From IMG/VR virus record IMGVR_UViG_3300032516_000193, positions 1 to 24,571 of that record: 24,571 nt of DNA; one strand, written 5' to 3'. The DNA comes from a virus. The notes beneath the pieces were generated by a model, which saw nothing but the letters and a program-made list of their open reading frames with translations, was not told the origin of the DNA and did not search any database. Positions 1 through 20,483 of the stretch are shown one piece after another. Positions within the stretch are counted from its first letter, which is position 1. The number at the start of each line of letters is the position of its first letter. The position numbers were made by a program, and so were the translations under genes.

Positions 1-1604
1 GTATCGCTGTATTTACGAACAGTCAATGTGAATGAACCCCAATCACTACCTGCGACGTGGCCCGCTAGTTTTACATTTTCGACTTGAACCTTGAACATTG
101 TGTTCGTATTAGTACCGTCACTTAGGGTTAGAACTCTGAACAATTCAAATCTTGTTGGAACTGTTGAACCAGACTGCCAAGGAGCAATCTTTTGTGATAC
201 GACCCAAGGTGTTGCTGCATTCGTAATTGAGAATGCGCTGTCACCATTAGCCAAATCGGTTGAATAAGCATCCGTGAAGTTCATCGGTTGACCGGAGAAC
301 GAAGATGTAGGAAGAGCAGAACCGTAAACTCCCCACGTTTCTTTTTCACTGGAAATTTCCGAAATAGCGTTTTCGTAAACTTTATACAAATACGCCGCTT
401 CAATTTTCTGACCAGATACTTGTGTTGCTGGGTTGCCTGCTACAGGGTCATTACCAAACACGTTGGTAATATAGCTTGTGCTATTACTATCCAATGAGAA
501 TTGATAGACACCATAAGGAGTCACGCTGTCGGTGTTTTGGAGTGTGAGGCTGAAATCCAAAGGAATATCAGTTACACCAGCCACAGGAATTGGGTTCGTC
601 AAAGTCATGGATGAACCATAGAAACCCGGAGCCTGCAAGTTTTGAATACCACCAGCTTGAGTGTCTGCCAATACGGCAAGCAATCTAACATCAGCGCCTG
701 ATTGAGTTACCCAAGCACCATTTGGTAGAACACATGGGTCAAACGAAGCTGAACCATTGGATGTAAATCCTGTGTATTTACCAAAAGAACCACTTAGAAC
801 ACCAGAGAGTAGAATCAATGGGAATCCACAAGTTCCAAGATTGACACTCAATGAAGCACTAATCAAAGTTAGTGATGTGTTGAATGGTGCGGCGGCTTGT
901 GTATATGTTACTGAAAGTGGGCTTGTGAATGAAGCTGAGAACGTTCCATTTGCGATAGACGCTGAGAACTGTGATTGTGAAACGTTTGTCAAAATTGTTG
1001 ACACGTTTGTTGTACCAAGAGTAATCGTTTGTCCAGAGTATAGAATAGAACCACTCGTAGAACTTGGATTAAATGGTGCGGCCACATCCGATGGAGTACC
1101 ATTGAAAGTAACAGTGAAGGAAGCCGAATTCATTGAAGAAATCGTCTTGCTGCTGGTATTTACGAATGAAATACTTTCACTAAATTGGTTTGCTGCACTA
1201 CCAGAAAAATAAACGTAAGAACTTCCACTACTAAGAGCACCCGCAGAGGCAGCTCTGTTATATTGACCTTTGACGGCCCAAATAGCGAACGGATAATTCT
1301 GTTCGTATCCAGTCAAACCACCAACACGACAAACCGTTACCAGACCACGTTCGGTCAAGTATTCAGCGGCTGTATATGGTCCATAATACACACCATCTGG
1401 CAAACCGAATCGGTTTTGCAAGGTATTCACGTTAACAAACGAGATTGGTGCGAAGGCTGGGCCTTGTGCGAATGGAGCAACAACAACGCCGCCGATATCA
1501 GCAACACCTGTTGCAACACCTGACTGGTCGTTTTCACGGGTGAATACACCCGGACTTACTATACGGCTATCTGGACTAAATGTTCCGCCTTCTTGAATTG
1601 GCAT
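1..1604 (-). CDS. gp18: Contractile tail sheath protein, gp18-like (N-terminal part; runs off left edge)
   Basis: Polymerises around the tail tube and contracts to drive it through the host envelope. I translated the open minus-strand frame from ATG at 1604 to the window edge (about 534 residues, no stop met). It begins MPIQEGGTFSPDSRIVSPGV, and the SPGV-[FY]-x-[RK]-E segment is the classic sheath N-terminus. A GG-V-V-APFAQGPAF stretch and a FG-LPD...YLTERG segment follow, matching the T4 gp18 N-terminal region (KFQWGPAF, FGQPTAE). Near the edge DWGSFTLTVRKY resembles the gp18 core strand around T4 residue 280, but here it lies near residue 525, so about 240 extra residues, rich in Ser/Thr/Gly, are inserted. 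The start is supported by AAGGAAA at 1611-1617. The gene lies alone after a terminator and has its own late promoter. Family call is firm; the C-terminus is outside the window. Confidence 0.85.
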   Translation of the reverse strand, partial: MPIQEGGTFSPDSRIVSPGVFTRENDQSGVATGVADIGGVVVAPFAQGPAFAPISFVNVNTLQNRFGLPDGVYYGPYTAAEYLTERGLVTVCRVGGLTGYEQNYPFAIWAVKGQYNRAASAGALSSGSSYVYFSGSAANQFSESISFVNTSSKTISSMNSASFTVTFNGTPSDVAAPFNPSSTSGSILYSGQTITLGTTNVSTILTNVSQSQFSASIANGTFSASFTSPLSVTYTQAAAPFNTSLTLISASLSVNLGTCGFPLILLSGVLSGSFGKYTGFTSNGSASFDPCVLPNGAWVTQSGADVRLLAVLADTQAGGIQNLQAPGFYGSSMTLTNPIPVAGVTDIPLDFSLTLQNTDSVTPYGVYQFSLDSNSTSYITNVFGNDPVAGNPATQVSGQKIEAAYLYKVYENAISEISSEKETWGVYGSALPTSSFSGQPMNFTDAYSTDLANGDSAFSITNAATPWVVSQKIAPWQSGSTVPTRFELFRVLTLSDGTNTNTMFKVQVENVKLAGHVAGSDWGSFTLTVRKYSD

Positions 1605-3597: not shown

Positions 3598-4599
3598 TTA
3601 ATTTGTGCTTAATGTATCACTTGTCTCTATTACATACATAGCACTATTCGGTGTAGTTTTAACAACTCTAAAAGTTTTTCCATTAAAATCTAAAGCACCG
3701 TCAAATGTTTGACCATCAGAAAAATTTGCAATAGGATGTAATACTTGATAAAACCCACGAAGTTGTCCTCGTATAACAGAAGTCGAATTTTCAACCACCC
3801 ACACAGGACTCAAATAAAGGGCATTGTCAGTTGTATTTGGCATAGGAATACCACCCAAAAATGCAGTAGAACTTCCTTTTATACCATCGCCATGTTTACC
3901 AATAGTTATACTTGTTCCTATTCCTGTTGTAGATCTAGGCATAAAACATCCACCAACAGCAGTGACCAATACTGATAAGAAATCGAATCCATCATTTGCA
4001 GCCGCAGAAGTATTTTCACCATTTCTTCCCATGATAATACATCTGTATGGGTCTGAACTGCCTGTTCCTTTGAATGAATAAATATCACCAAATCCAAATC
4101 CATAATATGTTGCGGCGGTATCACCCGTAGCGATTAAACTATAAAACGAACTTGAATCTGCAAAAACAATCCACTGTCTCAATGAACTTGAATCATTTGT
4201 AAGACTTTTTCTAACAACGACGTGACCTGTGGTTAATAATTGTGCAGGTGTAGGGAATTGTCCTGACCCGCTACCAATTGAATTGGATACAGAAGATGAC
4301 AGACTTGCCAAAGATTCCCATCCTGTTGCCCAAGCTTCTTTATACAAAGCCGTTGCATTTTGACCATTATCATTTACAAATAAATACATTCCTGAACCTG
4401 ATGGTTGTTGCCATGCACCAATCGAATCAGGAAAAGTTCCGGCGCTGCCGGTATTTGTAAATGGTTTTAACCATCCAGCTCCAACTTTTGAACCATATCC
4501 ATTTACTAAACAAGAATCCAATAATGCAATAAAACTTCCTGTCGTTCCATAAAAGGAAGGCGCTCCTGAATCGCTTGACCTGTATATTGTAAATGCCAT
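3598..4599 (-). CDS. Fibre-region virion protein, paralogue 4 of 4
   Basis: A 333-aa protein, the shortest and most diverged of four tandem paralogues. The shared N-terminus is FTIYRSSDSGAPSFYGTTGS, then the LLDSCLVNGYG and GWLKPFTNTGSAG segments. Mid-protein are LFVNDNGQNAT, GQFPTPAQLLTTGHVVVRKS, RQWIVFADSS and FGFGDIYSFKG. The shared C-terminus is IRGQLRGFYQVLHPI, FSDGQTFDG and a closing ETSDTLSTN. I recall this IYRSxDxGAPxxxGxxGS family as common in tailed phages near tail-fibre genes; its exact function is unknown. It starts 3 bases after the previous paralogue's stop, with no clear ribosome site, so reinitiation is likely. Confidence 0.7.
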   Translation of the reverse strand: MAFTIYRSSDSGAPSFYGTTGSFIALLDSCLVNGYGSKVGAGWLKPFTNTGSAGTFPDSIGAWQQPSGSGMYLFVNDNGQNATALYKEAWATGWESLASLSSSVSNSIGSGSGQFPTPAQLLTTGHVVVRKSLTNDSSSLRQWIVFADSSSFYSLIATGDTAATYYGFGFGDIYSFKGTGSSDPYRCIIMGRNGENTSAAANDGFDFLSVLVTAVGGCFMPRSTTGIGTSITIGKHGDGIKGSSTAFLGGIPMPNTTDNALYLSPVWVVENSTSVIRGQLRGFYQVLHPIANFSDGQTFDGALDFNGKTFRVVKTTPNSAMYVIETSDTLSTN

Positions 4600-4602
4600 A
4601 TA

Positions 4603-5751
4603 TTAGTTTTTGTCCACCGTTGGTGTTGTTTCTATTGCCCAAAAAGACCCAACAACGGTTTGACGAATTATTTGAAACCCTTTTCCAGCATATTCACCAG
4701 ACCCGCTTATTATTTGTCCATCTACAAAGCTAGTAAGTGGATGTAATACTTGATATAATCCTCTTAATTTACCTCTTAATGTAATTGAATTTGCCGGTTC
4801 CATCACATATAATGGACTCATATAAAATGAATTGTCTGATGAATTTGGACATACTATATTACCATTAATTGGACTTGCCGTCGGCGTCGGGCTTATCCAA
4901 GGATTAGGATCACACGATGCTATATCTCCCCTTTTAGTATAGTTTAAACTTGTTCCACCGCCATATCCTGTTCTGGCTATGTAATGGCCGGGTTGTGCAG
5001 TGGTTACAAAATTACCTACACCAAAACTTGAACCGGGAGGTATTATGTCCGTGTAATCATATGCTGTACCATTATTAGAATTTTGTCCTCTACCAATAGT
5101 ATCAAAACTCGCCCTACCATAAATTGAACATTTCCAAATATCCGATGCTCCCGCATATGAAAAGATATCACCAAACATCCAATGATAATAACGTCCGGCA
5201 GCATCTCCCGTAGCTATCCACATATACATTGTAGTATCGTCGGCAAAAATTATCCAATATCTAGGATTGGAACTGGCGGAGTCAAAAGTTAAACTTTTTC
5301 TAACTATAACATATCCAAATGTATTTTGTTGTGTTGGTAGTGGAAATTGTCCAAGTCCAATTCCAACGCTTCCAGACCTATCTCCACCAAGTAATTGTGA
5401 TGGTGTACATGTGGAGCCAGAAAAAGTTAATGTTTCCCATCCTGTTATAGTAGCTTCTCGGTTTCCCACTGTAACGTTTACACCAAAATCATTAACAAAT
5501 AATGACATTGATGACCCGCCGCCTTGTCTGTAACAACCATAGGCTGCGCTGCCTGTGGCACTAGAACTAATACTAGCAGAATTTTGAAATGGTTTAGTCC
5601 AACCTGCCGGTGCTTTGAAAGACGAACCCGTTCCATATCCTGCTACTAAAACGTAATCCAAAATATTTATAAGAGAGCCCGTATTTCCATAAATAGGACC
5701 CGGCCCTTGTGGGTCATTCGCCGAATAAAATTTAAATTGTGATGTTGGCAT
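4603..5751 (-). CDS. Fibre-region virion protein, paralogue 3 of 4
   Basis: A 382-aa protein, the longest of the array. It shares the framework (FKFYSANDPQGPGPIYGNTG, ILDYVLVAGYGTGSSFK, AGWTKPFQNSAS, GQFPLPTQQNTFGYVIVRKS, WIIFADDTTMYMWIATGDA, LRGKLRGLYQVLHPLTSF, ending ETTPTVDKN). It differs by insertions around residues 95-130 and 215-285, which are rich in Gly, Ser, Thr and Tyr. Those variable segments are the likely surface or receptor-facing loops. The start lies 3 bases after the stop of paralogue 2. Confidence 0.7.
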   Translation of the reverse strand: MPTSQFKFYSANDPQGPGPIYGNTGSLINILDYVLVAGYGTGSSFKAPAGWTKPFQNSASISSSATGSAAYGCYRQGGGSSMSLFVNDFGVNVTVGNREATITGWETLTFSGSTCTPSQLLGGDRSGSVGIGLGQFPLPTQQNTFGYVIVRKSLTFDSASSNPRYWIIFADDTTMYMWIATGDAAGRYYHWMFGDIFSYAGASDIWKCSIYGRASFDTIGRGQNSNNGTAYDYTDIIPPGSSFGVGNFVTTAQPGHYIARTGYGGGTSLNYTKRGDIASCDPNPWISPTPTASPINGNIVCPNSSDNSFYMSPLYVMEPANSITLRGKLRGLYQVLHPLTSFVDGQIISGSGEYAGKGFQIIRQTVVGSFWAIETTPTVDKN

Positions 5752-5754
5752 AAT

Positions 5755-6831
5755 TTAATTTGTTTCTACAGTGTTGGATACTTCCAATCCCCAAAATCCA
5801 CCACTATTTCCTCCAACTGTAATAACCATAAAAGTTTTTCCTGCATATGTGCCAGACCCATCAAGTTTTTGACCTACTGTAAAAGTGGTTGCGGGATGAC
5901 AAATCTGATACAACCCTCTATATCTACCTCTTATATTAATAGAAGGTGGTTCTACTACCCATAAAGGAGAAATGTAATACGAACCATCATATGCATTTGG
6001 GGATGCCATAATTCCATCAATTATACTTGCTTGATTTGATGTTGCAGAAACTCCTGACGTAGATGATAACCCTTGATCGCCTTTAACGGCGTTAAACACA
6101 CTTCCTCCTGTTCCTGATGCATTAGCCGCAAGATAATGTCCATTCAGTCCCACGGTTAAAGAATTTATATTGCTTTGTCTTCCTGCGTCCTGTGAACCGG
6201 CACTCATTGTATCACACCAATTATTTGCCGCGCCGGTGGCATGTCCACCATAAATAAAACATCGCCATAAATCTGTTGGTCCTTTTAATGAATAAAACTC
6301 ACCAAATCCAAAGTGCCAATATCTTGAACCATTGTCGCCGGTTTGAATCCACATATACATTGTACTGGCATCAGCCGCAAGAATCCATTGTCTAGCAACG
6401 GAACTAGCGGTTACACTTTTTCTAATTACAAGATGTCCAAATGTTAGTAATTGTATAGGTGTAGGGAACTGTCCATAGCCTGTTCCCACAGAGCCAGTAT
6501 TCAATATTCCAGCAGGAGGAATACTAGAACTTAAATATTGCCAACCTACAAGACTTGCTTCAGTAGCCGTAAGTCCAGTAGTAGGTGCGCTATCATTTAC
6601 AAACATTGAAAACTGAGAACCAGATGCTTGTTTAAATCCACCAGCAGTACTAGCTGAGTCGGGACAAGGTTTACTCCATCCTGCTGCGGGTTTAAAATAA
6701 GACCCTGTTCCATATCCATTAATCAAACATGCGTTTAATATTCTTAATAAAGACCCTGTTAATCCATTGCAAGCACCCGGACCGTCACGGTCTTCTGAGG
6801 TATAAATTGTAAATGATGACGTTGTAGGCAT
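5755..6831 (-). CDS. Fibre-region virion protein, paralogue 2 of 4
   Basis: A 358-aa protein with the shared framework: FTIYTSEDRDGPGACNGLTG, LNACLINGYGTGSYFK, AGWSKPCPDSAS, GQFPTPIQLLTFGHLVIRKS, RQWILAADASTMYMWIQTGD, FGFGEFYSLKGPTD, IRGRYRGLYQICHPATTF and a closing SNTVETN. The segment at about residues 195-280 is unlike the other copies. The start is 5 bases from the upstream stop. The function is presumed structural, in the fibre or baseplate periphery, because the four copies lie between the giant fibre gene and the sheath gene. Confidence 0.7.
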   Translation of the reverse strand: MPTTSSFTIYTSEDRDGPGACNGLTGSLLRILNACLINGYGTGSYFKPAAGWSKPCPDSASTAGGFKQASGSQFSMFVNDSAPTTGLTATEASLVGWQYLSSSIPPAGILNTGSVGTGYGQFPTPIQLLTFGHLVIRKSVTASSVARQWILAADASTMYMWIQTGDNGSRYWHFGFGEFYSLKGPTDLWRCFIYGGHATGAANNWCDTMSAGSQDAGRQSNINSLTVGLNGHYLAANASGTGGSVFNAVKGDQGLSSTSGVSATSNQASIIDGIMASPNAYDGSYYISPLWVVEPPSINIRGRYRGLYQICHPATTFTVGQKLDGSGTYAGKTFMVITVGGNSGGFWGLEVSNTVETN

Positions 6832-6836
6832 AAAAC

Positions 6837-7946
6837 TTAATTAGTTTCTACTGTATTTGAGGTTTCTAACAACCAAAGTCCAAGACCGTCAGTTGTCGGT
6901 TTAATTACCATCAACGTTTTTCCAGAATAATCACCACCCGCGGTGATATTTTGTCCATCAGTAAAATTAGCAATTGGATGATTAATTTGATATATTCCTC
7001 TCATTCTTCCACGATAACATATACCACTTGGTTCTATTATTTGTAATGGTGTGATGTATATTGAATTATCTGACCCGTTCGGTGTTTGCAACACTCCCGT
7101 CATAGATGTGGTATCTGCTGTTGTCTGGTCCACCGCGCTCGAAGTGGTTGGATCTCCTTTTTTAGTTATTCCGGTGCTTCCTCCTGTTCCTGACATACTT
7201 CTAGCTATCCAACATCCGGGCTGTGCGGTACCTATACTGGTTCCACCAACACTGCCAGCACCAATGGACGCACCAGTAGCAATCAAACCAGTCATATCGT
7301 TGTTAAGAGTTACACTAGTATTTTCCGTAAAACGACCCATTACTAAACACCTGTATATGTCATTTGTGCCTCTTAATGAAAAGATATCACCAAACATTCC
7401 ATGATAATATGCCGTGGTATCCAATGTAAGTACCCAAAGATACATTGTGCTAGAATCGGCTGCAATAATCCATTGTCTAGGGGTTGTATCAGCAGCAGAA
7501 GATTTTCTCCAAACAACGTGTCCACTATTTAATTGTTGACCGGGAAATGGAAATTGTCCAAATCCAAATCCATTGCCATAAGAACCTGAATAAACAAATC
7601 CTGAACCACTTGTTGGATTTGTTAAACTTGTTATAAGTTCAAATCCACAAATCCAAGCTTCTTTTCCCAAAGAAGTAGCATTTGCTCCTGCATCATTTAC
7701 AAACAAAGATAATTTAGACCCCGATGCTTGTTTATAGGCAGCCAATAATGACGGCCCGTTAAGAGTTCCAGATACGTTTGTTAATGGTTTACTCCAACCG
7801 GCTCCCTGTTTAAAATACGACCCGGTTCCATATCCACCGACCAATACATAATCAAGGACGTTTATCAAAGACCCTGTAGCACCGTTCATTGGACCCGGTC
7901 CTTGTGGGTCAGATGAAGTGTAAATTGTAAATTGTGATGATGGCAT
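6837..7946 (-). CDS. Fibre-region virion protein, paralogue 1 of 4
   Basis: A 369-aa protein, first of the tandem array in the direction of transcription. The framework is FTIYTSSDPQGPGPMNGATG, VLDYVLVGGYGTGSYFKQ, AGWSKPLTNVSG, LFVNDAGANATS, GFGFGQFPFPGQQL, RQWIIAADSSTMYLWVLT, YRGRMRGIYQINHPIANF and SNTVETN. It begins after a 61-base gap behind the giant fibre gene, preceded only by a weak AAAAGAT purine stretch. With paralogue 2 it forms the closest pair by eye. The likely role is a virion surface protein. Confidence 0.7.
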   Translation of the reverse strand: MPSSQFTIYTSSDPQGPGPMNGATGSLINVLDYVLVGGYGTGSYFKQGAGWSKPLTNVSGTLNGPSLLAAYKQASGSKLSLFVNDAGANATSLGKEAWICGFELITSLTNPTSGSGFVYSGSYGNGFGFGQFPFPGQQLNSGHVVWRKSSAADTTPRQWIIAADSSTMYLWVLTLDTTAYYHGMFGDIFSLRGTNDIYRCLVMGRFTENTSVTLNNDMTGLIATGASIGAGSVGGTSIGTAQPGCWIARSMSGTGGSTGITKKGDPTTSSAVDQTTADTTSMTGVLQTPNGSDNSIYITPLQIIEPSGICYRGRMRGIYQINHPIANFTDGQNITAGGDYSGKTLMVIKPTTDGLGLWLLETSNTVETN

Positions 7947-8007: not shown

Positions 8008-11000
8008 TTAAGCATTGGATAATTCTGCAATAACCGTCCAATTTTGTGCAGTTCCTAGAGTTGTTACATTGAATCTCAATTTATCTCCGCTTACGGTAGT
8101 TGTAAAGGTTCCTGTCGCATAATTTTCATAAGAACTACTAGGCAATGAAACCGAACCAATCAACGAAGCAGAAAAAGCACCCACAACCGATGATTTTTCT
8201 ATATTGATGGATGATGTAATGGATTCTACGGATTGTGCTCTAATAGACAATCGTTTTACACTCCATGATATTACAGTGTTATTTTGTGGATTAAACGGAA
8301 CTATAACTTCCGCCGCGTCGCCGCCGGTTGTGGTTGGTGAAAATGCTGAACATAATACCACAGACCTACCAATAGGCACCCAAGAAGCCGTAACTGCATA
8401 ACTTGATGAAAGTGCTACTGATGAGAATGATGAACTAATTGACCGTGAAGCGAACGATGCTGACGTGGCCCAGAATGATTCTGAGGCAAATGATGCTGAT
8501 ATAGCATAGTCACTCGGAACTGGTGGTGCCCACGATGCGCTGATGGATTGACTTGCAAACGAAGCACTTATTGCAAATGATGCAAATAATGAAGCCGACG
8601 CCCAAGAAGCAGATATTGATGATGTAGCTATAAAAGCTAATTGAGCAAAAGAAGCATAACTTGCACTTACAGCTTGAAGAACATTCAAAGTATTCAATGC
8701 CCATGACGCCGTTCCAAATAAACTCGAAGAAACCGCTGGAACAGTTATAGCATCCGTTGCTGGATTATATGTAAGATTACTTCCACTATCAATATAAAGT
8801 CTCTGAAATCCACTACCAGTTACAAATGGAATGTAGTAAATGCTAGAACCTGTTGCTAAATTGATATTTACAAACAATGACATGGAAGAGTTTACGGCCC
8901 ATGATGCAGACATTGATTGTGTAATAGATGGCAAGAAATAATTGGCCGCGTAAGACCACGACATGTTTTGAAACACTGTTGTTTCATCAGCAAGTGCTTG
9001 AACACCTAAATCAAGAATTGATGCGGATTGAATTCTATTTGTTGCAATACTTCCCGTCGAAGTAAATCCACCATACAACAACAGTTTACTTCCTGATACA
9101 ATAGCTACTTGTGAATGGTCATTAAATGAGTTACTAAACAGTGTACTTGCATATCCACCCGGATTACTTATTTGTGCTCTATTGATTTTTGAAGAAATTA
9201 TACTTCCGTTATATCCACCAAAATTGTAGTAATAATTTCCAATTACAACACCACTGTTGTTTATGTAAGCACATCCCGGATTAATACCAATATTAGCCAC
9301 ACCCCACGCTGACGGATTTTGAACGGATGATGTATAAACCGATGTATTTACGTTATTGAATCCAGACCCGTTAAACCCACCAAACGCACAAATTTTATCA
9401 CCAAGAACGGCGGCATTACCTGCAATCGTTGACTGATATCCTCCACCACCAAACCAAGTTACAGGAACAATAGACCATGATAAAGGATTACTAGCCGTAG
9501 CATACAACGACGCTGAAAATACTGCACTTCCCGAAGAAGTAAGACCACCGAAAATCCACAATTCTTGATTGTCATTAATAACAACCGTGTTATGATTACT
9601 TAGATTAAATGGCAACGAACCGGTAGCAACCCAAGTAGTAGGATCATCTAAAGATGCGGTTTGAATTGAAGATGTTGGAGTTCCTACGTTATCAATAGCA
9701 CCACCGAAAAGATAAAGACTATTACCCAAACGAATACAATTGGTTTGTAAAACTGGTATAGGTAAAGTTTTGCCTGTAGCTACGGTAATTTGACCACCAT
9801 CACCGACTGATGAAGTCCAAATTGTACCAAGTGCCGCTGCGCCACTATAACCACCAAAAACATACACCGTTCCACTCACCATTGCACCAGCCGCACCATA
9901 AAAAGTTGATGATGCGGTTCTAGCGGTAGCACCCAATCGTGATTCCGAAAGTTGAAGTTGATACCAACCCGGAATAGGCCAAGTAATCGTAGTATTGTTG
10001 GAAAATGATGCGCTAGTAGAATAACTTGATGTAATATTCCATACACCCGAACCTGTAACTACCGTCAATCTTCCATTGGTTGTAGTAACAACAACCGAAC
10101 CAGAAGGCATCGTTATATCATTTATAGCAAATTCTTTTCTAGCTGTACCTGTATTAATTGTACAAAACCACTTATCAGTATTGAATTCTACAACACCTGC
10201 TTCTGGAACAGTTAATAGAGTACTTGAATCCCACTTCATCTGACCTCTTGTTGCAGTTCCATCGCCACCCGCCAAATGTAATAAAGCAGTAGGAGTATCA
10301 CTAACAACGTTTTGTCCAATTCTAATACCACCAATGGTTATTTTTGCTTTTGTCGAACCAACATCCGTATCACCATTTACAAGAAAATAATGACCAGCAC
10401 TTACAGCATTAGCATATGAAACATATACTACTTGTTTTAGATAATCGGTTCTCCATCTACCAGCCAAACTGTTTGAACCGCTGATGATGGATGTGATATG
10501 TGTTTGACCAGTAAGACTTGGATTAACCAATGTTATATGGTCTGTTGCTGTAGTAAAGGCATTTGTATTACTTAAAAATATGGTTAAACTGCCTGATGGG
10601 GCTATAGTTCCAAGACCCACTTTACTTCCTGTTTCATACAAAGAACTTGTATCCGACAATGAACCACTTGTAACCCACGTTGTAAAATACTTTGGTGTAC
10701 CCGGTCCTATAGCTATTAAAGCATAAGAAGCCGTCACAGCATAACTTGAACTTAAAGATTGACTGGCCCAAGAGGATGATATTGAAAACGCCGTTACACC
10801 TGATGGAGGCGCCCATGATGCGGATGTAGAATTATACGCCCAACTAGCTGTACCAAAATATAGACCACTACTACTGACAAAAGCAACGGTATCAGATGTA
10901 AAATTTTTCCAAGATTGAATTGTACTAGAATCTAAAACATAAGGAGCAACGTTTATGTATTGGTGGTCAAGTGGTAAACTTGAAGTTAGTGCATATTTCC

Positions 11001-14000
11001 AAGCCAAATAACCTTCCATTTTACGTTGTTCATCAGAACTAATGTTTTGGTTCGTAATAATGATTTCAGCAATTTCTCCACTAAATGGTTGCCCGAAGTT
11101 AGGTTCAAATCCAACAAACAAATCACGAAGATCCATGTCATTTGAACCATTAACAACACCAGAACTTGTAGCAGCATTATTTATGTAAACGGTTAGAATT
11201 GAATTATTAGAATTAACATTACCGTTGACAATATACCAAGAACGAGAAATATTTGCCAAAGCATTTATGTCATAAGTTGTAGTTCCTGATTCATTATACA
11301 TATTCCATTCAGGAACACCACTGAAAATTCTTGGTCCTAATGTAAAATCTCTGGAATTACCAGAATGTCCATTAGCAATCACGGTGCCGTTTGAAAAAGC
11401 TGACGGTGAAACTGGAAATGTTTGTGGCTTGACTACAGCAAATACACACAACGATGATTGAGATATTGATGTACTTCCTGATATAGCACTCAACCTATCA
11501 TTTGTACCATCAAAGTGAACAACACTGTGTCCGTTGATTGATGATGTGTATAAAGCCGGTTGATTACCAGCCGTAGATTGAGTAAAGTAATTTCCATAAG
11601 AACCTGTATCAGGCCATAGAGATACGGATGAACTTTGTGACCCTGTTATATCATCACCACGCAACCATACTCTCATTGGAACGGTTGCGTAAAACGGACT
11701 CCAAAGAATGTTACTAGATGATGAAAATGCTTTGACAGTCAATGTTGCATCTATTTGTGACCCTGTAGCACGAATGCCTACGCCTACTCCTGTATCAAAT
11801 ACAGAACTGGTTTCAGTAAGACTGTTATTCTGCCATTTTGGAAGATAGTTGTTAGTTCCAACAATTCCAAAGGTAGGTGCCCATGATGCACTCAATGAAA
11901 AACTTGCCCACGAAGCAGATTCAGCAAAGCTATTAAACTGTGGTGGCGACCAAGAAGCACTTATTGCAAATGATGCACTTAAAGAACGTGATGCCCAAGA
12001 GGCTGAATCAGCAGCGAACGATTTACTAGCAAATGATGATGTTACTGATATAAAAGATTTACTAGCAAATGACGCGGTGGTAGCCCAAAAAGACTCTGAG
12101 GCCCAAGATGCTGATACAGCAAAATCACTTGGTATTGGCGGCGCCCACGATGCACTAATTGATACAGAAGCAAAAGACGCAGATGTAGAAAAGAATGACC
12201 GTGAAGCAAAAGATGCCGATGTGGCAACAAATGATGCGCTTGCCCAAGATGCGGAAAGAGCATTAGGATTTACATTCAATGAGAAAGATGCAGTAATAGC
12301 GAAACTTGAACTCAACGATTGACTTGCCCAAGATGCAGATACAGCATTAGGATTCAAATTGGTGGCGAAAGAAGCCGTCAATGCAAATGATGACGTTAAA
12401 GAATTGCTTGAACTTAATGATTGACTTGCCCATGATGCTGTATCGGCAGAAAAAGATTTACTAGCCCACGATGCAGAACGTGCAAATAACGATGATGATG
12501 CAAAGGATGCCGATGAGGCCCAGAACGATTCTGAGGCCCAAGAAGCTGATATAGCATAGTCACTTGGGAGTGGTGGTGCCCAACTTGCAGATACGGCCTG
12601 ATAAGCATTTACCGCACTTGAGGCGGTCAAAGCATATGAAGATGATATAGCTTGACTCGAACTCAACGATTGACTTGCCCAAGATGCAGAGGTTGATGAG
12701 CCTGCTGAGCCGGGTGCCCACGAAGCACTAATAGCAAAAGAAGATGTGGCGTATAGTATTCCACTACCACTAAAGAATCCTACAACATTTCTGTTTATAT
12801 CTTTCCATACTTGAATATTGCCGCCACCAAGAGGTATAGGCATGGATGTTTTATAGGTATGTGCTGTAGGCAAACTTTGCACCAATCCATACTTCCAAGC
12901 CAAATATCCTTCAACCCTTGATTGGTCGCCAGCTGATATGGATGAAGTTATGATAATGATTTCAGCTATATCACCATTAAACGGTTGATTAGATGAAGAT
13001 TCCCAACCAATACACAAATCTTTCAAATCTAAGTTTGTAGATTGGGCTGATACTCCTGAACCAGAAGCAGAACCGCTCAAATAAATTGTTGTTGAACTTG
13101 CACCGCCATTTACAATTACGGTATTGATATACCATTCACCTGTTTTAGCGTTGTATGGATTAATGGGAGTTTCCGTATCAAAACTTGAAACTGCATCTTC
13201 GGTGTGAAGAGTCCAAGTAAATCTTGAAGTTCCACCATCAAAACGTTCACCAACTACAATGTCTCTATTATTACCAACGTGACTATTACCAAAAATTGTT
13301 CCTACATTTGCGTTTGTAACAGTAGGAGCATAAGACGTTACCTTGGCTACCACGAACGCTGTCAATGCACTACAACTTACAGAAGTAGGAACAAGACAAC
13401 GCATCTGGTCATTTGTTCCGTCAAATCTAACGGCGGGATAACCATTAAGAACATTGTAAACCAACACCGGCCTTGAAGTAGCAGCAGACGCGGTAGCATG
13501 GTTTAAGTTTGGTGTGGAATCGGGCCATAAGTTTAAAAGACTGGCAGAAATGTCTGTAATAGCATCAGCTCTATACCACAATCTAGGACTATCACTACCC
13601 AAAAGCGTAGGCGTCCATAAAACATTTGAATTACTTACTTCTGTAATTGTAAATGTATCATTCGCTATAGGATTTGGTGTATTTATGCCTACATTGTCAT
13701 CGTTTACATAAATCAAACTGCCAGTAGTAGGCACATTATTCCACCAATACCCTACGTAATTGTTACTTCCCACCAAATTAGAACCTCCGCCGCCGCCATT
13801 TAAAGCGTGAGAGGCTGTCACGGAAAAATATGAATTTTGAGCAAAGCTAGCAGAAATTGGAGTTTGTTGCCAAAATGCGTTGTTTGTTCCACCAATTAGA
13901 GTGTATTCTTTACTGTCATTTGTAACCCAAACTCTCAATCCAAGGTATCTATCACCAAGAGGAATTGCATCACGAGCCGTAGTATCTACCACAACCGTTC

Positions 14001-14280
14001 TTTGGTCAACTGGCAAAGGATTGTCGGTTGTTATAAAGAAAGATGTACTAAGTGATTGACTAGCCCAAGATGCTGATATTGCTGCATTAGCGAATGTGGT
14101 TGGTGGTGGATAAAGAGTATAAAAAGACGCAGATTTATCGGCATTTAAATTTCCCGAAGCATCAATATGAAGAATTACTTCGGATGCCGAAATGTGAGTT
14201 TCACCATAATACGTATTTGTGGCATCACGTTGTAAAATTACAACATCTTTCGGCTGTGGATTTGTATTAGTAATCGGCAT
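8008..14280 (-). CDS. Giant multidomain tail fibre-like protein with lectin, Kelch and Ala/Ser-rich repeat modules
   Basis: A 2090-aa protein, probably a long side-tail fibre that contacts the host surface. Modules in order: N-terminal 1-60; three copies of a G-[ST]-x-x-Y-x-x-x-W...VG[IL] module (about 170-200, 808-836, 1193-1225); two LamG/concanavalin-like lectin domains (about 218-478 and 856-1108), each ending GDIAEIII or GEIAEIII followed by EGYLAWKY; Ala/Ser-rich repeats of [ST]ASWAS-type (515-800, 1145-1190, 1865-1968); a 1225-1395 region with LLHLAGGDGTA; six Kelch motifs (1455-1757); and a C-terminal beta domain (1970-2090). There is no chaperone/autoprotease motif, collagen repeat or transmembrane segment. 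The start is supported by AAAGGT at 14287-14292. Fibre identity is inferred from size, repeats and position; the domain calls are by motif. Confidence 0.8.
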   Translation of the reverse strand: MPITNTNPQPKDVVILQRDATNTYYGETHISASEVILHIDASGNLNADKSASFYTLYPPPTTFANAAISASWASQSLSTSFFITTDNPLPVDQRTVVVDTTARDAIPLGDRYLGLRVWVTNDSKEYTLIGGTNNAFWQQTPISASFAQNSYFSVTASHALNGGGGGSNLVGSNNYVGYWWNNVPTTGSLIYVNDDNVGINTPNPIANDTFTITEVSNSNVLWTPTLLGSDSPRLWYRADAITDISASLLNLWPDSTPNLNHATASAATSRPVLVYNVLNGYPAVRFDGTNDQMRCLVPTSVSCSALTAFVVAKVTSYAPTVTNANVGTIFGNSHVGNNRDIVVGERFDGGTSRFTWTLHTEDAVSSFDTETPINPYNAKTGEWYINTVIVNGGASSTTIYLSGSASGSGVSAQSTNLDLKDLCIGWESSSNQPFNGDIAEIIIITSSISAGDQSRVEGYLAWKYGLVQSLPTAHTYKTSMPIPLGGGNIQVWKDINRNVVGFFSGSGILYATSSFAISASWAPGSAGSSTSASWASQSLSSSQAISSSYALTASSAVNAYQAVSASWAPPLPSDYAISASWASESFWASSASFASSSLFARSASWASKSFSADTASWASQSLSSSNSLTSSFALTASFATNLNPNAVSASWASQSLSSSFAITASFSLNVNPNALSASWASASFVATSASFASRSFFSTSASFASVSISASWAPPIPSDFAVSASWASESFWATTASFASKSFISVTSSFASKSFAADSASWASRSLSASFAISASWSPPQFNSFAESASWASFSLSASWAPTFGIVGTNNYLPKWQNNSLTETSSVFDTGVGVGIRATGSQIDATLTVKAFSSSSNILWSPFYATVPMRVWLRGDDITGSQSSSVSLWPDTGSYGNYFTQSTAGNQPALYTSSINGHSVVHFDGTNDRLSAISGSTSISQSSLCVFAVVKPQTFPVSPSAFSNGTVIANGHSGNSRDFTLGPRIFSGVPEWNMYNESGTTTYDINALANISRSWYIVNGNVNSNNSILTVYINNAATSSGVVNGSNDMDLRDLFVGFEPNFGQPFSGEIAEIIITNQNISSDEQRKMEGYLAWKYALTSSLPLDHQYINVAPYVLDSSTIQSWKNFTSDTVAFVSSSGLYFGTASWAYNSTSASWAPPSGVTAFSISSSWASQSLSSSYAVTASYALIAIGPGTPKYFTTWVTSGSLSDTSSLYETGSKVGLGTIAPSGSLTIFLSNTNAFTTATDHITLVNPSLTGQTHITSIISGSNSLAGRWRTDYLKQVVYVSYANAVSAGHYFLVNGDTDVGSTKAKITIGGIRIGQNVVSDTPTALLHLAGGDGTATRGQMKWDSSTLLTVPEAGVVEFNTDKWFCTINTGTARKEFAINDITMPSGSVVVTTTNGRLTVVTGSGVWNITSSYSTSASFSNNTTITWPIPGWYQLQLSESRLGATARTASSTFYGAAGAMVSGTVYVFGGYSGAAALGTIWTSSVGDGGQITVATGKTLPIPVLQTNCIRLGNSLYLFGGAIDNVGTPTSSIQTASLDDPTTWVATGSLPFNLSNHNTVVINDNQELWIFGGLTSSGSAVFSASLYATASNPLSWSIVPVTWFGGGGYQSTIAGNAAVLGDKICAFGGFNGSGFNNVNTSVYTSSVQNPSAWGVANIGINPGCAYINNSGVVIGNYYYNFGGYNGSIISSKINRAQISNPGGYASTLFSNSFNDHSQVAIVSGSKLLLYGGFTSTGSIATNRIQSASILDLGVQALADETTVFQNMSWSYAANYFLPSITQSMSASWAVNSSMSLFVNINLATGSSIYYIPFVTGSGFQRLYIDSGSNLTYNPATDAITVPAVSSSLFGTASWALNTLNVLQAVSASYASFAQLAFIATSSISASWASASLFASFAISASFASQSISASWAPPVPSDYAISASFASESFWATSASFASRSISSSFSSVALSSSYAVTASWVPIGRSVVLCSAFSPTTTGGDAAEVIVPFNPQNNTVISWSVKRLSIRAQSVESITSSINIEKSSVVGAFSASLIGSVSLPSSSYENYATGTFTTTVSGDKLRFNVTTLGTAQNWTVIAELSNA
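8377..8688 (-). repeat. C-terminal Ala/Ser-rich repeat tract of the giant fibre
   Basis: Encodes residues about 1865-1968, with repeated SASWA, SASFAS and SSSYAVTASW units spaced roughly 10-12 residues apart. It is the same unit type as in the central tract, and the phrase PPxPSDYAISAS recurs in both, pointing to internal duplication. Confidence 0.65.
9010..9918 (-). repeat. Six Kelch-type repeats in the giant fibre (beta-propeller)
   Basis: Encodes residues about 1455-1757. Six motifs with paired Gly occur: VYVFGG (1472), LYLFGG (1522), LWIFGG (1574), ICAFGG (1630), YYNFGG (1684) and LLLYGG (1733). The spacing is 49-56 residues, the usual Kelch blade length, and most blades carry a Trp or aromatic residue upstream. 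Six blades predict one closed propeller, probably for binding glycan or protein. Confidence 0.75.
10957..11715 (-). other. Second LamG/concanavalin A-like lectin domain of the giant fibre
   Basis: Encodes residues about 856-1108. It parallels the first lectin domain: LW-P opening, [VL]W[LY]R[AG]D, SLWPDTG, VHFDGTND, GHSGNSRDF, DLRDLFVGFEP, GEIAEIIITNQNIS and EGYLAWKYAL-SLP-H. Many core positions match domain 1 and the loops differ, as expected for a duplicated binding domain. Confidence 0.65.
11881..12738 (-). repeat. Central Ala/Ser-rich repeat tract of the giant fibre
   Basis: Encodes residues about 515-800, made of some 20 degenerate units such as SASWASQSLSSS, ASFASSSLFARS and SASWASESFWAS with a period near 12 residues. 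At DNA level, variants of 'cccaagatgc' and 'cttgcccaaga' recur. The tract links the two lectin domains and probably forms an elongated trimeric shaft. Confidence 0.75.
12847..13629 (-). other. First LamG/concanavalin A-like lectin domain of the giant fibre
   Basis: Encodes residues about 218-478. Key segments are RLWYRADAI, NLWPDS, VRFDGTND, GNSHVGNNRDI, DLKDLCIGWES, GDIAEIIIITSSIS and EGYLAWKYGL-SLP-H. The GEIAE-type strand followed by EGYLAWKYG is characteristic of LamG-like domains in environmental and phage surface proteins. Confidence 0.65.
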
Positions 14281-15316: not shown

Positions 15317-15700
15317 TTACTTTTTATACACCAGCGAACCTTCATATTCTGGATGTTCAACAAATCCATTCTTCTTGTAGAAGTTGATTTGTTCTTCGGT
15401 GTTACCGTCGTATCCACCCGGTTCAACTAAAATATTTGCGTCAGCGTCTTGTTTAAGAACTTCCGCCACAGCTTTTTGTAATAGATAACTTCCAATGCCT
15501 TGCCCCCTAGAATTTCTATCACCAACCAATGCTCTTGCCACCCACCACCTATTACCGTCAATCCTATCTATACTTACAACCGAATTTCTTGTGGGACCAA
15601 GACCCAATCTATGCATAATAGATACACTTTGAGAGGTAGATAATACAGTTATATCTTTTTCTTCAATTGTTTCAAAAATTAACTGTTTAAGTTTAATCAT
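15317..15700 (-). CDS. GNAT acetyltransferase with capsid-targeting-like N-terminus
   Basis: A protein of about 127 aa that would transfer acetyl from acetyl-CoA to an unknown amine. GNAT motif A is RNSRGQGIGSYLLQKAV (residues about 63-79), holding the R-x-x-G-x-G acetyl-CoA loop, and motif B is INFYKKNGFV near the C-terminus. ATG at 15700 is chosen over the TTG at 15709 because GGGGA lies just upstream and the ATG overlaps the preceding stop as ATGA. This start gives MIKLKQLIFE, matching the shared decapeptide of other genes here and the [IL]-x-E prohead-protease site. It sits inside the neck operon between the gp14- and gp15-like genes. The enzyme family is sure; capsid packaging is inferred; the target is unknown. 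Confidence 0.8.
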   Translation of the reverse strand: MIKLKQLIFETIEEKDITVLSTSQSVSIMHRLGLGPTRNSVVSIDRIDGNRWWVARALVGDRNSRGQGIGSYLLQKAVAEVLKQDADANILVEPGGYDGNTEEQINFYKKNGFVEHPEYEGSLVYKK

Positions 15701-16056
15701 GTTCCCCAATTTGCTAGAGCATTTTTCAATTCGTTACTATTCATTGGTTCAAATTCATCGCCTTGTATATGTGCATACCATTGACCATGTTCATCATTAT
15801 AATAAATTGAATCATCCATTCTTTTTTTATTGGCCAACATCCACGTATTTTTTGCATTAAGCGGCGACATTCCAACGACTGATATTCCAGTACCTCCATG
15901 ATGAATTGATACAATATCTTTTGGGTCTTCGTTGCGTTTCATGGCTGTAGCACTAAGATAATGAAGAACTCTAATAACATCATCTGGAGTACCTGATTTT
16001 GAATGCCAACGATACGTAGGGATTCTTGCTTCTATTAAAGTCTTTAGTTTAATCAT
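15697..16056 (-). CDS. Hypothetical protein with capsid-targeting-like N-terminus
   Basis: A 119-aa protein whose fold I do not recognise. It begins MIKLKTLIEA, close to the decapeptide shared with the GNAT gene next door and with the plus-strand cargo genes; here L-I-E places the presumed cut after residue 9. The remainder is soluble, with IHHGGTGISVVGMSPLNAKN and several aromatic residues (YRWHSK, WYAHIQGDEF). Its ATG overlaps the stop of the gp14-like gene (ATGA), and its own stop overlaps the GNAT start, so the three genes are translationally coupled. It is probably a packaged accessory protein, by inference only. Confidence 0.65.
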   Translation of the reverse strand: MIKLKTLIEARIPTYRWHSKSGTPDDVIRVLHYLSATAMKRNEDPKDIVSIHHGGTGISVVGMSPLNAKNTWMLANKKRMDDSIYYNDEHGQWYAHIQGDEFEPMNSNELKNALANWGT

Positions 16057-16530: not shown

Positions 16531-17010
16531 TTATCGGTCAAAGTCTCTATCATCATCCCTATCTTCGTCATAATCTGGCTCAGCATCAAAATCAATGGAA
16601 TTCAATATTTTATCTTCTATATCAGATTGATTTTTGTTCACATACTGTTCTACATAGACTCGCAAAGGTAATAGTTGTTCTGGTGTCAATTTGGCTACAT
16701 CCCACTCTACTTCTTGTCCCCTTTCATCTGTGACTTTCATTGAAACAGGATATTGTTCAATAATATCTACCGATGCTCCCTCTCCCGGATAACAATTCTC
16801 AGGCGGTCCATAAGTTTTTCCCTCACAACCACCATCAGCTTCATATCCAATGGTTATATTGATTAATACATAATCACCCATATTTACAATGCCCGGAATT
16901 GCTAAGTCATCTACTTCAATTTCGTAGTCTTCGTATTCACCACTAGCACCACTTTGTCTTTTACGAATTTCTTGTACAATTTCTTTTATTAGTGATTTTT
17001 TTCTTTTCAT
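16531..17010 (-). CDS. Acidic hypothetical protein in the neck operon
   Basis: A 159-aa protein of unknown function. It opens with a very basic helix, MKRKKSLIKEIVQEIRKRQ, in which the first ten residues end I-K-E, so it may carry a variant of the capsid-targeting decapeptide. A beta-rich middle follows (YEIEVDDL, GDYVLINITIGYE, VSMKVTDERGQEVEW), then LTPEQLLPLRVYVEQYV, and finally a highly acidic tail with repeated Asp/Glu/Arg (EDRDDDRDFDR). AGGAT upstream of the ATG supports the start. It lies between gp13- and gp14-like genes, so a role in neck or head completion is also possible. Confidence 0.65.
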   Translation of the reverse strand: MKRKKSLIKEIVQEIRKRQSGASGEYEDYEIEVDDLAIPGIVNMGDYVLINITIGYEADGGCEGKTYGPPENCYPGEGASVDIIEQYPVSMKVTDERGQEVEWDVAKLTPEQLLPLRVYVEQYVNKNQSDIEDKILNSIDFDAEPDYDEDRDDDRDFDR

Positions 17011-17011
17011 A

Positions 17012-18229
17012 TTATCCTATGTAAATGAATAATGGAACCCGTTTCAATGTTTCCATCATTTGTTCTGATTGTAAGGCTTGATTTTCCATTTGTTGTTTTT
17101 GACTTGTAGCTAGAAGCGATTCTCTGAGTTGTGTAATCAAATCGGTTTTTTCTTGTTGGGCTTCGCTTCTTAATTCTGCACCATCCAAAGTAACATCACC
17201 ACCCGGGATAGGAAGAGTTTGATACTTTTGACGAATAGCACCAAGAAGTTCCTTACATACAGCCAAGAAATATTTACGAATCCATTGCCTACCAACAGAG
17301 TTTAATGTATTGTAAACAACGTTATTATAGGGAATGTTAGCATAGTCAGCAACGTAACTACCTGTGTAGTGTGGGTCGCCGCCTGAGTTCAATGAACCAC
17401 TTAATCTATCTTCCCTCAACATATAGTCAAAATAAACATTAAATCCATACGTTGGAATTGGAAACAATTTCAATTTGTTATTTACCAACTCAAATGAATA
17501 TGCGCTTTTACGAACCATGTCATTAAACTCAATTGCTTGCATACGAAGCAAATCTTCAAAAATCGGAGTCATGAGAAATTGAACCGCAGGAGAATATGCA
17601 CCAAATCCTAATTCATTCAATACATTTGAATAACTCATACCCGTCATAGAAAAGGGGTCATAGACACGGGCGGAAGCAGGAGCCCGTTCATGGAATATCC
17701 TCATTACTTCAATTCTATTACAATTTTCCACTTTATCCCCCCACAAAGCTTGTAAATCATACGTTTGTTGATGAGGATACGTCGTAATGAAACCTTTTTT
17801 CCAATCTGCATATCCACCAACACCAACTTCTCTACCATATCCCTTGGCAAGTTCTATTATGTATGGTAGTGTAGTTCCGGTTACGGCTTTACCTGTAAGA
17901 TTTCCCAATGCTGTAACTTTTTGTCCTTGAAATACTTGAAGGTAATTTTGAATATTCATCTGATTGACTTGAGCTGAATATTCATTTACCGATTCTTCAT
18001 AGGCAGCATAGAAATTTACATCTAAAAGTTCAATGTCAATGACAGGATACCCAAGTCTGTATGCAGCCCAAATGGCCGCCGCTTGTGCATCGGCCTGAAA
18101 CATGAAATCGTTGTCGTAAAAGCCGAATGGCGTTTTACCTACCACCGACGAACCGCTGCCGGGCCATCTTACACGGTCTTGGTCAACTAAAGTAGTTGGA
18201 TTGGTTATTGGTTGTGTTACGTCGCTCAT
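17012..18229 (-). CDS. gp13: Neck protein, gp13-like
   Basis: A protein of about 405 aa. T4 gp13 is a neck protein needed for head completion and tail joining. The C-terminal third matches strongly by eye: RQWIRKYFLAVCKELLGAIR then PIPGGDVTLDGAELRSEAQQ, against T4 [20 protein letters not shown] then LPGGVTIDGQRLIEEA; both proteins end in a short hydrophobic x-x-x-x-G tail. Near the N-terminus RLGYPVIDIELLDVNFYAAY matches T4 [20 protein letters not shown]. The protein is about 100 residues longer than T4 gp13, mostly from a Gln-rich C-terminal segment (SQKQQMENQALQSEQ) and an N-terminal extension. ATG 18229 (MSDVTQP) is preferred to the start at 18238; neither has a good ribosome site. It is the first gene of the leftward operon. 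Confidence 0.85.
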   Translation of the reverse strand: MSDVTQPITNPTTLVDQDRVRWPGSGSSVVGKTPFGFYDNDFMFQADAQAAAIWAAYRLGYPVIDIELLDVNFYAAYEESVNEYSAQVNQMNIQNYLQVFQGQKVTALGNLTGKAVTGTTLPYIIELAKGYGREVGVGGYADWKKGFITTYPHQQTYDLQALWGDKVENCNRIEVMRIFHERAPASARVYDPFSMTGMSYSNVLNELGFGAYSPAVQFLMTPIFEDLLRMQAIEFNDMVRKSAYSFELVNNKLKLFPIPTYGFNVYFDYMLREDRLSGSLNSGGDPHYTGSYVADYANIPYNNVVYNTLNSVGRQWIRKYFLAVCKELLGAIRQKYQTLPIPGGDVTLDGAELRSEAQQEKTDLITQLRESLLATSQKQQMENQALQSEQMMETLKRVPLFIYIG

Positions 18230-18251
18230 AAAAATCACATGTATCTATCTG

Positions 18252-18689: not shown

Positions 18690-20483
18690 ATGTTAAAGGA
18701 AACCGAAAAAAAGATAAAACTCGGACTTAAGAAATTACAAGCCATCACAGGATTTGTAAACGATTCTTTTGATATAATAGCATCCGATGAACTTTCTCGT
18801 CACGATGATGTTTTGAGTCGTGGTCAGGGTTATGGTATTACTGCCAATGATAATAGATGGCGTTATCATTATGACGATGAGATTGTAAGATGGTGGGAAC
18901 TCATCCCATCTGAAAAACAGAGATTTGTAGTTGAAGAATTCCTAAAATACCAGTATAATGTTAAGGTGAAACGCCATGTTTTATACGGACAGTCACAACC
19001 GGAAGACTTTGGCGGAAACAAACTTATGGAAGAAATTAAACAGTTGATTAAAGAAGGCGTCAAAGAAAAAGCGTTGGAAGACTTTATCAGTAAGACTATT
19101 CGGGGAACTGAATGGCACGGTAAGGTATTCATCGCCGGTGGATATGTCCGTGATGAGTTCATGGGCAAAGACCCAAAAGACCTTGACTTGTTGGTAAACG
19201 CTCCAAATGGCGGAATCGAATTTGCCAAGTGGATTACCAAAAAAGTAGGAGCTTACAGAGGCGGGGCTAACGAAGAAGACCCCGGCTCTAATCCTGTAAT
19301 CTTCCCAAGATTTGGCACAGCGAAGTTTAATCTTCGTGGTGTTGTTCACAATGGTATTGACTTATCCGATATGGATATTGAGTCTGTAATGCCACGTAAA
19401 GAGGAATACACAGCAGGTTCAAGAAAGCCTACCGTAACAGGTGGAGAATTGAAAGATGACGTTGAACGTAGAGACTTTACCGTTAATAGTCTATTGAAAG
19501 ACTTATCAACGGGAGAAATCCTAGACCTTACAGGAATGGGCAAGGCTGACATTCAAGCTGGAATCGTCAGAACCCCTCTCAATCCTGACAAAATTTTCAC
19601 GGATGACCCACTTCGTATGTTGCGAGCAATTCGATTTGCTGTCAAATACAATTGGAAACTTCCAATGTTTATGTTGAGGGGATTGAAGAAGAATGCTAAT
19701 CAACTTCCAAACATTTCTCAGGAAAGAATTCGTGATGAATTGAATAAGATGTTGGTTACAGGCCATCCATCAAAGGCAATCAAAATGATGAAGGTTACAG
19801 GTTTGTTACCATTTGTCATTCCAGAACTTTTGCCTGCCGTCAAGATGGTTCAGAACAAATATCACAAAGCTGATGTGTTTCAACACACTCTTGATGTTCT
19901 TGGTAAAACCGAACCTGTATTGGTTCAACGTTTGATGGGATTGTTTCATGATATCGGCAAGACGGTTACACGTTCTGTTGAACCTGAGACAGGCGGCGTT
20001 CATTTCTACGGTCATGAAATGGAAGGTGAGAAAATGGTTGAAGAAATCATGGCTCGTCTAAAATACCCAAGAGAATTGATTGACGCCGTTAAGTTGGGCG
20101 TTCGTAACCATATGCGTCTAAAGCAGGCAGGTGATGTTGGAATTAAACTAAAAGACAAGACTCTGTTGAAGTTTCGTAATGAAATGGGCGAACAGTTGGA
20201 AAACGTCTTGAACTTGATGCATGCTGATAACATTGCTCACGCCGAAGCGTCATCTATGCCACATCAGATTGCTGGTATTCGTAAACGTTTGGAGACATTG
20301 AAAGATGTTCCTACCAAACCGAAGATGCCTATTTCTGGCTTTGACCTACAAAAAATGGGATTGAAACCCGGACCACTGTTCAAGGAAATCATTACTGCGG
20401 TTACTGATGCTTGGTATGAAAATCCCGGATTAACAAGAGAAGAAGCTTTGGACATTGCTAAAAAAGTAGCAAATATATCATGA
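18690..20483 (+). CDS. cca: tRNA nucleotidyltransferase (CCA-adding enzyme) with HD domain and N-terminal extension
   Basis: Adds or repairs the 3' CCA of tRNA from CTP and ATP. A 597-aa protein with all class II motifs: GGYVRD (150-155) with metal-binding D-L-D (164-166), RRDFTVNSLL (260-269), DPLRMLRAIRF (306-316) and SQERIRDEL (343-351). An HD phosphohydrolase domain follows (H399, H420-D421, H442, H474), as in E. coli Cca. Residues 1-122 are an extra domain absent from the usual ~410-aa enzyme; I do not recognise it. At residues 113-122 MEEIKQLIKE resembles the decapeptide of the neighbours, so either an internal start at 19026 or a protease cut there could yield a standard-size enzyme. 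The gene uses more CGT arginine codons than the next gene. The stop overlaps the next start (ATGA). Confidence 0.85.
   Translation: MLKETEKKIKLGLKKLQAITGFVNDSFDIIASDELSRHDDVLSRGQGYGITANDNRWRYHYDDEIVRWWELIPSEKQRFVVEEFLKYQYNVKVKRHVLYGQSQPEDFGGNKLMEEIKQLIKEGVKEKALEDFISKTIRGTEWHGKVFIAGGYVRDEFMGKDPKDLDLLVNAPNGGIEFAKWITKKVGAYRGGANEEDPGSNPVIFPRFGTAKFNLRGVVHNGIDLSDMDIESVMPRKEEYTAGSRKPTVTGGELKDDVERRDFTVNSLLKDLSTGEILDLTGMGKADIQAGIVRTPLNPDKIFTDDPLRMLRAIRFAVKYNWKLPMFMLRGLKKNANQLPNISQERIRDELNKMLVTGHPSKAIKMMKVTGLLPFVIPELLPAVKMVQNKYHKADVFQHTLDVLGKTEPVLVQRLMGLFHDIGKTVTRSVEPETGGVHFYGHEMEGEKMVEEIMARLKYPRELIDAVKLGVRNHMRLKQAGDVGIKLKDKTLLKFRNEMGEQLENVLNLMHADNIAHAEASSMPHQIAGIRKRLETLKDVPTKPKMPISGFDLQKMGLKPGPLFKEIITAVTDAWYENPGLTREEALDIAKKVANIS

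What the first reader, a model, noticed from the sequence alone, without database searches (positions are those of the whole stretch)
9010..9918. Six-bladed Kelch propeller embedded in a phage fibre
Six FGG/YGG motifs at 49-56-residue spacing form a complete propeller between fibre-shaft segments. Kelch propellers are mainly known from eukaryotic and bacterial surface or enzyme proteins. In a trimeric fibre this would give three propellers as a receptor-binding head.
Basis: partly seen in the sequence, partly recalled or inferred. Interest (0 to 1): 0.6.

Follow-up and report, generated by a model that had tools for sequence, protein, structure and literature searches.

The report
Kelch propeller inside phage fibre protein
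An uncultured T4-like phage carries a very long fibre protein with a complete six-bladed Kelch propeller, probably a sugar- or protein-binding adhesin module, inserted in its shaft; close relatives of the phage lack it, but propeller-bearing phage receptor proteins and Kelch virion proteins are already known.

Summary
Residues 1455-1757 of the 2,090-aa protein at 8008-14280 (-) carry six FGG/YGG motifs, at 1475, 1525, 1577, 1633, 1687 and 1736 (spacings 50, 52, 56, 54, 49). The region scores as Kelch in Pfam above the curated cut-off. An AlphaFold2 model built on 18 phage homologues (pTM 0.73) matches solved six-bladed Kelch domains such as LZTR1 and KEAP1 (Foldseek E about 1e-13). Single-sequence folding failed. 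The host protein has an N-terminal anchor conserved in related phages, two Laminin_G_3 domains and a Ser/Ala-rich repeat shaft on both sides of the propeller. The gene lies between neck and tail-sheath genes. None of 45 related phage records has this Kelch family. The two best-matching relatives keep the anchor and shaft but carry other or no globular domains, so the propeller is an accessory module at a variable adhesin locus. Kelch proteins are not rare in phages: jumbo phages encode a stand-alone family 31% identical to this domain. And the propeller is not at the tip, because about 330 residues of shaft and C-terminal domain follow it. Receptor binding is the likeliest role, but it is inferred, as is trimerisation.

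The parts
8008..14280 (-). 2,090-aa fibre-like protein that contains the Kelch propeller
   Evidence: ORF; phrog_10356 virion structural protein E=1.5e-32; same locus position as repeat-shaft proteins of related phages
14101..14280 (-). N-terminal anchor, residues 1-60, conserved in related phages (attachment role inferred)
   Evidence: 65% identity over 57 aa to L026, 43% over 56 aa to L028; alignment
12781..13617 (-). First Laminin_G_3 (concanavalin-like) domain, residues 222-500
   Evidence: PF13385 31.4 bits, cut-off 27.6; 37% identical to the second copy
11881..12780 (-). Ser/Ala-rich repeat shaft (SASWAS type), residues 501-800
   Evidence: S 34%, A 21%; [STA][AS]S[WFY][AS] motifs mostly 6, 9, 12 or 15 residues apart
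10885..11703 (-). Second Laminin_G_3 domain, residues 860-1132
   Evidence: PF13385 28.9 bits, cut-off 27.6; phrog_10356 best stretch 854-1125
9010..9999 (-). Six-bladed Kelch propeller, residues 1428-1757 including the putative N-terminal closing strand
   Evidence: PF24681 E=1.1e-18; AlphaFold2 pTM 0.73; Foldseek to LZTR1/KEAP1 Kelch domains E about 1e-13
9754..9909 (-). Blade 1, residues 1458-1509, FGG at 1475
   Evidence: Kelch_1 and Kelch_6 matches
9604..9753 (-). Blade 2, residues 1510-1559, FGG at 1525
   Evidence: PF24681
9442..9603 (-). Blade 3, residues 1560-1613, FGG at 1577, with an inserted linker at 1607-1613
   Evidence: Kelch_4
9277..9441 (-). Blade 4, residues 1614-1668, FGG at 1633
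   Evidence: PF24681
9124..9276 (-). Blade 5, residues 1669-1719, FGG at 1687
   Evidence: PF24681 stretch reaches its first half
9010..9123 (-). Blade 6, residues 1720-1757, YGG at 1736; its outer strand is uncertain
   Evidence: Kelch_2; low model confidence after residue 1739
8311..8973 (-). Second Ser/Ala-rich shaft segment, residues 1770-1990
8008..8310 (-). C-terminal domain, residues 1991-2090, no family match over a cut-off (possible tip)
   Evidence: role inferred
3598..7946 (-). Four consecutive related tail-protein genes directly downstream; three tested match phrog_9600 'tail assembly protein'
   Evidence: 6837-7946, 4603-5751, 3598-4599; 5755-6831 judged related by eye
3..1604 (-). 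Tail sheath protein (incomplete at window end)
   Evidence: matches tail sheath proteins of cyanophages and Mel-JY01
17012..18238 (-). Head completion/neck protein (gp13-like position)
   Evidence: phrog_211 head-tail adaptor; 45.6% to Microcystis phage Mel-JY01

Best explanation
The protein is a long, probably homotrimeric, fibre of a T4-like myovirus: an N-terminal anchor, a Ser/Ala-rich repeat shaft and several globular modules (two Laminin_G_3 domains, one six-bladed Kelch propeller, a C-terminal domain). The Kelch propeller is an exchangeable binding module mounted part-way along the fibre. It most likely binds a cell-surface glycan or protein of the host and so helps adsorption. Shown: the propeller, the domain order, its absence from relatives that share the anchor. 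Inferred: trimer, virion location, ligand and function.
For: Kelch by profile, by fold and by 31%-identical phage homologues over 300 aa. The shaft composition and motif repeat lie on both sides of it. The gene lies between a neck protein and the tail sheath, followed by tail-protein genes. Relatives keep the anchor (65% and 43% identity over about 57 residues) and shaft but not the Kelch, and 0 of 45 related records has PF24681, as expected of host-range modules. Kelch or FGG-propeller domains occur in tail proteins of unrelated phages: L120 combines tail-fibre PHROGs with a C-terminal FGG array, and L155 lies two genes from a baseplate wedge gene. Trimeric phage receptor-binding proteins with propellers are established: phi11 Gp45, and the K1F and phi92 endosialidases (PMC4901313).
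Against: No binding partner, host or proteomic evidence exists. The propeller is neither terminal nor the only candidate binding domain. Its nearest sequence relatives are stand-alone proteins encoded among non-structural-looking genes, so the fold's ancestral phage role may not be adsorption. Trimerisation was not tested.
Confidence: 0.68

Rival explanations
1. The propeller is a structural or assembly module: it binds another virion protein, for example as a neck/whisker or collar fibre docking domain, rather than the host.
For: Kelch domains are mostly protein-binding. The gene sits beside neck genes, and the best PHROG over the Laminin_G region is filed under head and packaging. CBB, whose tail bears whiskers, has a Kelch virion protein (PMC5259590).
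Against: The Kelch is missing in all 45 related records, including relatives with the same anchor and shaft; an assembly contact should be conserved.
Confidence: 0.17
2. The propeller is an enzyme that modifies or cleaves a surface glycan, as endosialidase or galactose-oxidase-type propellers do.
For: Propellers in phage tailspikes can be catalytic (K1F endosialidase, PMC12632334); 15 of 19 alignment members match the N-acetylneuraminate epimerase Kelch model NANM weakly.
Against: The window domain itself does not match NANM at E 0.001. It is poor in charged residues (K 1%, R 1%, E 1% and D 3% of residues 1455-1770). Catalytic sites were not mapped.
Confidence: 0.1
3. An artefact: mis-assembled or low-complexity repeat mistaken for Kelch.
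For: The protein is repetitive and the single-sequence model failed.
Against: Sequence 99.8-100% identical in three other records; curated Kelch cut-offs met; fold supported by the 19-sequence model.
Confidence: 0.02

Closest known systems
Stand-alone phage Kelch family on jumbo-sized viral contigs (L225-L260; phrog_12615/phrog_16120; BFVD A0A6J5RHN5)
   Same: Six Kelch blades of the NPxxW...FGG type, up to 31% identical over 300 residues, collinear
   Different: About 400-430 aa, own N-terminal domain, no shaft, encoded among non-structural-looking genes
Kelch virion proteins of jumbo phages (CBB_552; PhiKZ-like Noxifer, PhiPA3, PA1C)
   Same: Kelch propeller in or annotated in the virion (PMC5259590)
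   Different: The nearest hit, in PA1C, is a 313-aa protein that is little more than the propeller, about 27% identical over part of the domain; no repeat shaft or Laminin_G domains were seen in it
Trimeric phage receptor-binding proteins with propellers (phi11 Gp45; K1F and phi92 endosialidases)
   Same: Propeller between an N-terminal stem and C-terminal domains in a fibre- or spike-like protein (PMC4901313)
   Different: phi11 has five blades and K1F/phi92 have endosialidase propellers; neither is reported there as Kelch; here the trimer is untested
LZTR1 and KEAP1 Kelch domains
   Same: Same six-bladed fold, best solved-structure matches
   Different: Eukaryotic ubiquitin-ligase adaptors; 15-18% identity
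Repeat-shaft fibres of related phages (L026, L028; phrog_10356)
   Same: N-terminal anchor, SAS-type shaft, and a Laminin_G-like domain in L026
   Different: No Kelch domain; shorter, split into several genes

Membership tests
Kelch propeller family (PF24681 and Kelch_1/2/4/6) | Profile match over curated cut-off | tested here: met
   PF24681 56.6 bits whole protein and 67.4 domain against 50; Kelch_1, Kelch_2, Kelch_4 and Kelch_6 at or over cut-off for the region
Kelch propeller family (PF24681 and Kelch_1/2/4/6) | Repeats of about 50 residues with a Gly-Gly pair | tested here: met
   Six FGG/YGG motifs at spacings 49-56
Kelch propeller family (PF24681 and Kelch_1/2/4/6) | Conserved downstream aromatic (Tyr/Trp) in each blade | tested here: inconclusive
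   NPxxW/DPxxW in blades 2-4, NPxxY in blade 5, absent in blades 1 and 6
Kelch propeller family (PF24681 and Kelch_1/2/4/6) | Six-bladed four-stranded propeller fold | tested here: met
   Model pTM 0.73, mean pLDDT 68, 22 strands; top PDB matches are six-bladed Kelch domains; ends of low confidence
Phage tail fibre / receptor-binding protein | Encoded in the tail/neck module | tested here: met
   Between neck and sheath genes, followed by phrog_9600 tail proteins
Phage tail fibre / receptor-binding protein | Fibrous repeat shaft and conserved N-terminal anchor | tested here: met
Phage tail fibre / receptor-binding protein | Homotrimer, part of the virion, binds host surface | not testable with these tools
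   No multimer prediction or experiment available
Galactose oxidase / NanM-type enzymes | Family profile and catalytic residues | tested here: inconclusive
   Window domain does not match NANM at E 0.001; catalytic residues not mapped

The most novel reading that the evidence does not exclude
A phage has captured a Kelch propeller of the type jumbo phages use in a separate, perhaps intracellular, role and inserted it into a receptor-binding fibre next to two Laminin_G domains, giving a fibre with several different binding modules along its length.
Probability: 0.3. Interest if true: 0.5.

Novelty: new variant of a known kind. Interest (0 to 1): 0.36.

Why it matters
It adds Kelch to the propeller types found within phage fibres, and shows the domain being present at a locus where close relatives carry other modules. 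It also links the fibre domain to a stand-alone phage Kelch family that had no match in the annotated phage collection searched. If the propeller binds a host glycan, it would be a compact probe, simple to express, for the unknown host of this phage group.

Tried and rejected
Single-sequence AlphaFold2 of the region gave pLDDT 33 and was discarded. Protein-based scans of viral contigs found only the same phage; a scan of bacterial and archaeal genomes found no relative. A permuted-blade alignment was useless because identical stretches aligned to themselves. An apparent longer span in L005 and L006 was not a length variant; the DNA is collinear. The first FGG pattern scan returned many proteins that are not Kelch by Pfam, and none similar to this domain. 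Whether the DGY tripeptides in the stand-alone homologues reflect a DNA motif was checked: nearly all lie on one strand, that of the Kelch gene, so there is no sign of a genome-wide element. Artefact and chance were rejected.

Full report
Observation. The ORF at 8008-14280 on the minus strand encodes 2,090 residues without interruption. Residues 1455-1757 match the stated window coordinates. All [FY]GG tripeptides of the protein lie there. Shuffled versions of the domain never reached six.

Is it Kelch? Yes. PF24681 is over its curated cut-off for the whole protein and for the excised region, and single-repeat Kelch models match at or over theirs for the region. By sequence alone the best solved relative is the LZTR1 Kelch domain (E = 5e-9). 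A first AlphaFold2 run on the single sequence failed, pLDDT 33. A DNA pattern for NPxxW...FGG...NPxxW then fetched about 20 homologous phage proteins, the best 31% identical over 300 residues. With 18 of them in the alignment the model reached pTM 0.73 and mean pLDDT 68, with blades 1-3 mostly 75-96 and the later blades lower. Foldseek returns six-bladed Kelch domains throughout, E about 1e-14 to 1e-12, TM-scores 0.56-0.67 by query. The closing strand of blade 6 is unresolved: residues 1428-1453 and 1740-1775 are low confidence. In the homologues a Trp-bearing segment precedes the first blade, which suggests, but does not show, closure by the N-terminal strand.

What protein is it in? An N-terminal anchor of about 60 residues, a Laminin_G_3 domain, a Ser/Ala-rich shaft, a second Laminin_G_3 domain 37% identical to the first, further linker, the Kelch propeller, more shaft, and a C-terminal domain with no match over a cut-off. 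Neighbours are a gp13-like head-completion protein, other neck proteins, a tail sheath and a run of related tail proteins. The nearest annotated relatives of the neck protein are Microcystis phage Mel-JY01, an uncultured 484-kb phage, and Flavobacterium immuto phages, so the host is not determined.

Where else does it occur? The same phage (99.8-100%) is in three other IMG/VR records. Using the neck protein as bait, 80 related loci were fetched. L026 and L028 carry proteins at the same position with the same anchor (65% and 43% identity over about 57 residues) and the same kind of shaft repeats, but no FGG arrays. PF24681 was absent from all 45 records tested. Those records are often fragments, so absence is strictly of the parts sequenced, but in L026 and L028 the equivalent genes are present. 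The domain is therefore accessory in this lineage.

Related Kelch proteins in phages. PhiKZ-like phages carry several, some annotated as virion structural proteins. CBB_552 was detected in the CBB virion (PMC5259590). The closest sequence relatives are the stand-alone proteins found here, many on contigs of 130-480 kb; by eye their neighbours look like an ADP-ribosylglycohydrolase, a helicase, a peptidyl-tRNA hydrolase, a tRNA-His guanylyltransferase and a DNA ligase, so their role is open. Other phages attach FGG or Kelch arrays to tail proteins: L120 has tail-fibre PHROGs plus a C-terminal FGG array (phrog_27227), and L155 has Kelch in a large protein two genes from a baseplate wedge protein. 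The literature searches turned up no report of a Kelch propeller in a phage fibre, but they cover only open-licence papers.

Mechanism. Shown: fold, architecture, locus, variability. Inferred: the fibre is a trimer on the virion and the propeller binds a host-surface molecule. The layout of stem, propeller and C-terminal domains is that of phi11 Gp45 (PMC4901313), where three propellers form a platform rather than a tip. That is a better analogy than a terminal head.

Verdict. The finding is real and the fold reading is right; rarity and the head position were overstated. Interest is moderate.

Noticed in passing
15317-15709, 15697-16056, 16531-17010 (-), 20480-22450, 23702-24451 (+); also L025, L026, L028: Five otherwise unrelated proteins share an N-terminal leader MIKLKxLIxE (5 hits against 0.005 expected by shuffling); relatives have 4-5 each. 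From memory this resembles T4 capsid-targeting propeptides, so these may be internal head proteins injected with the DNA.
   Followed up: partly
L225, L228, L229, L231, L234, L236, L238, L245, L246, L248, L253, L257: Stand-alone phage Kelch family with a conserved N-terminal domain in a conserved neighbourhood (helicase, Pth2-like, Thg1-like, DNA ligase-like); no match in the annotated phage collection.
   Followed up: partly
L246, L253, L245, L248, L260 Kelch genes: The tripeptide DGY is strongly repeated (for example DGYDGYDGY), well over expectation on the coding strand.
   Followed up: partly
L109:2521-6762 (-): A 1,414-aa viral-contig protein combining 17 RCC1 repeats with a C-terminal FGG-repeat array.
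   Followed up: no
L116, L129, L147, L162: Very long FGG-repeat proteins, some with DYSNDTATAS-type repeats (L116, L162), that match PF24681 weakly or not at all where tested; possible large propeller arrays.
   Followed up: no
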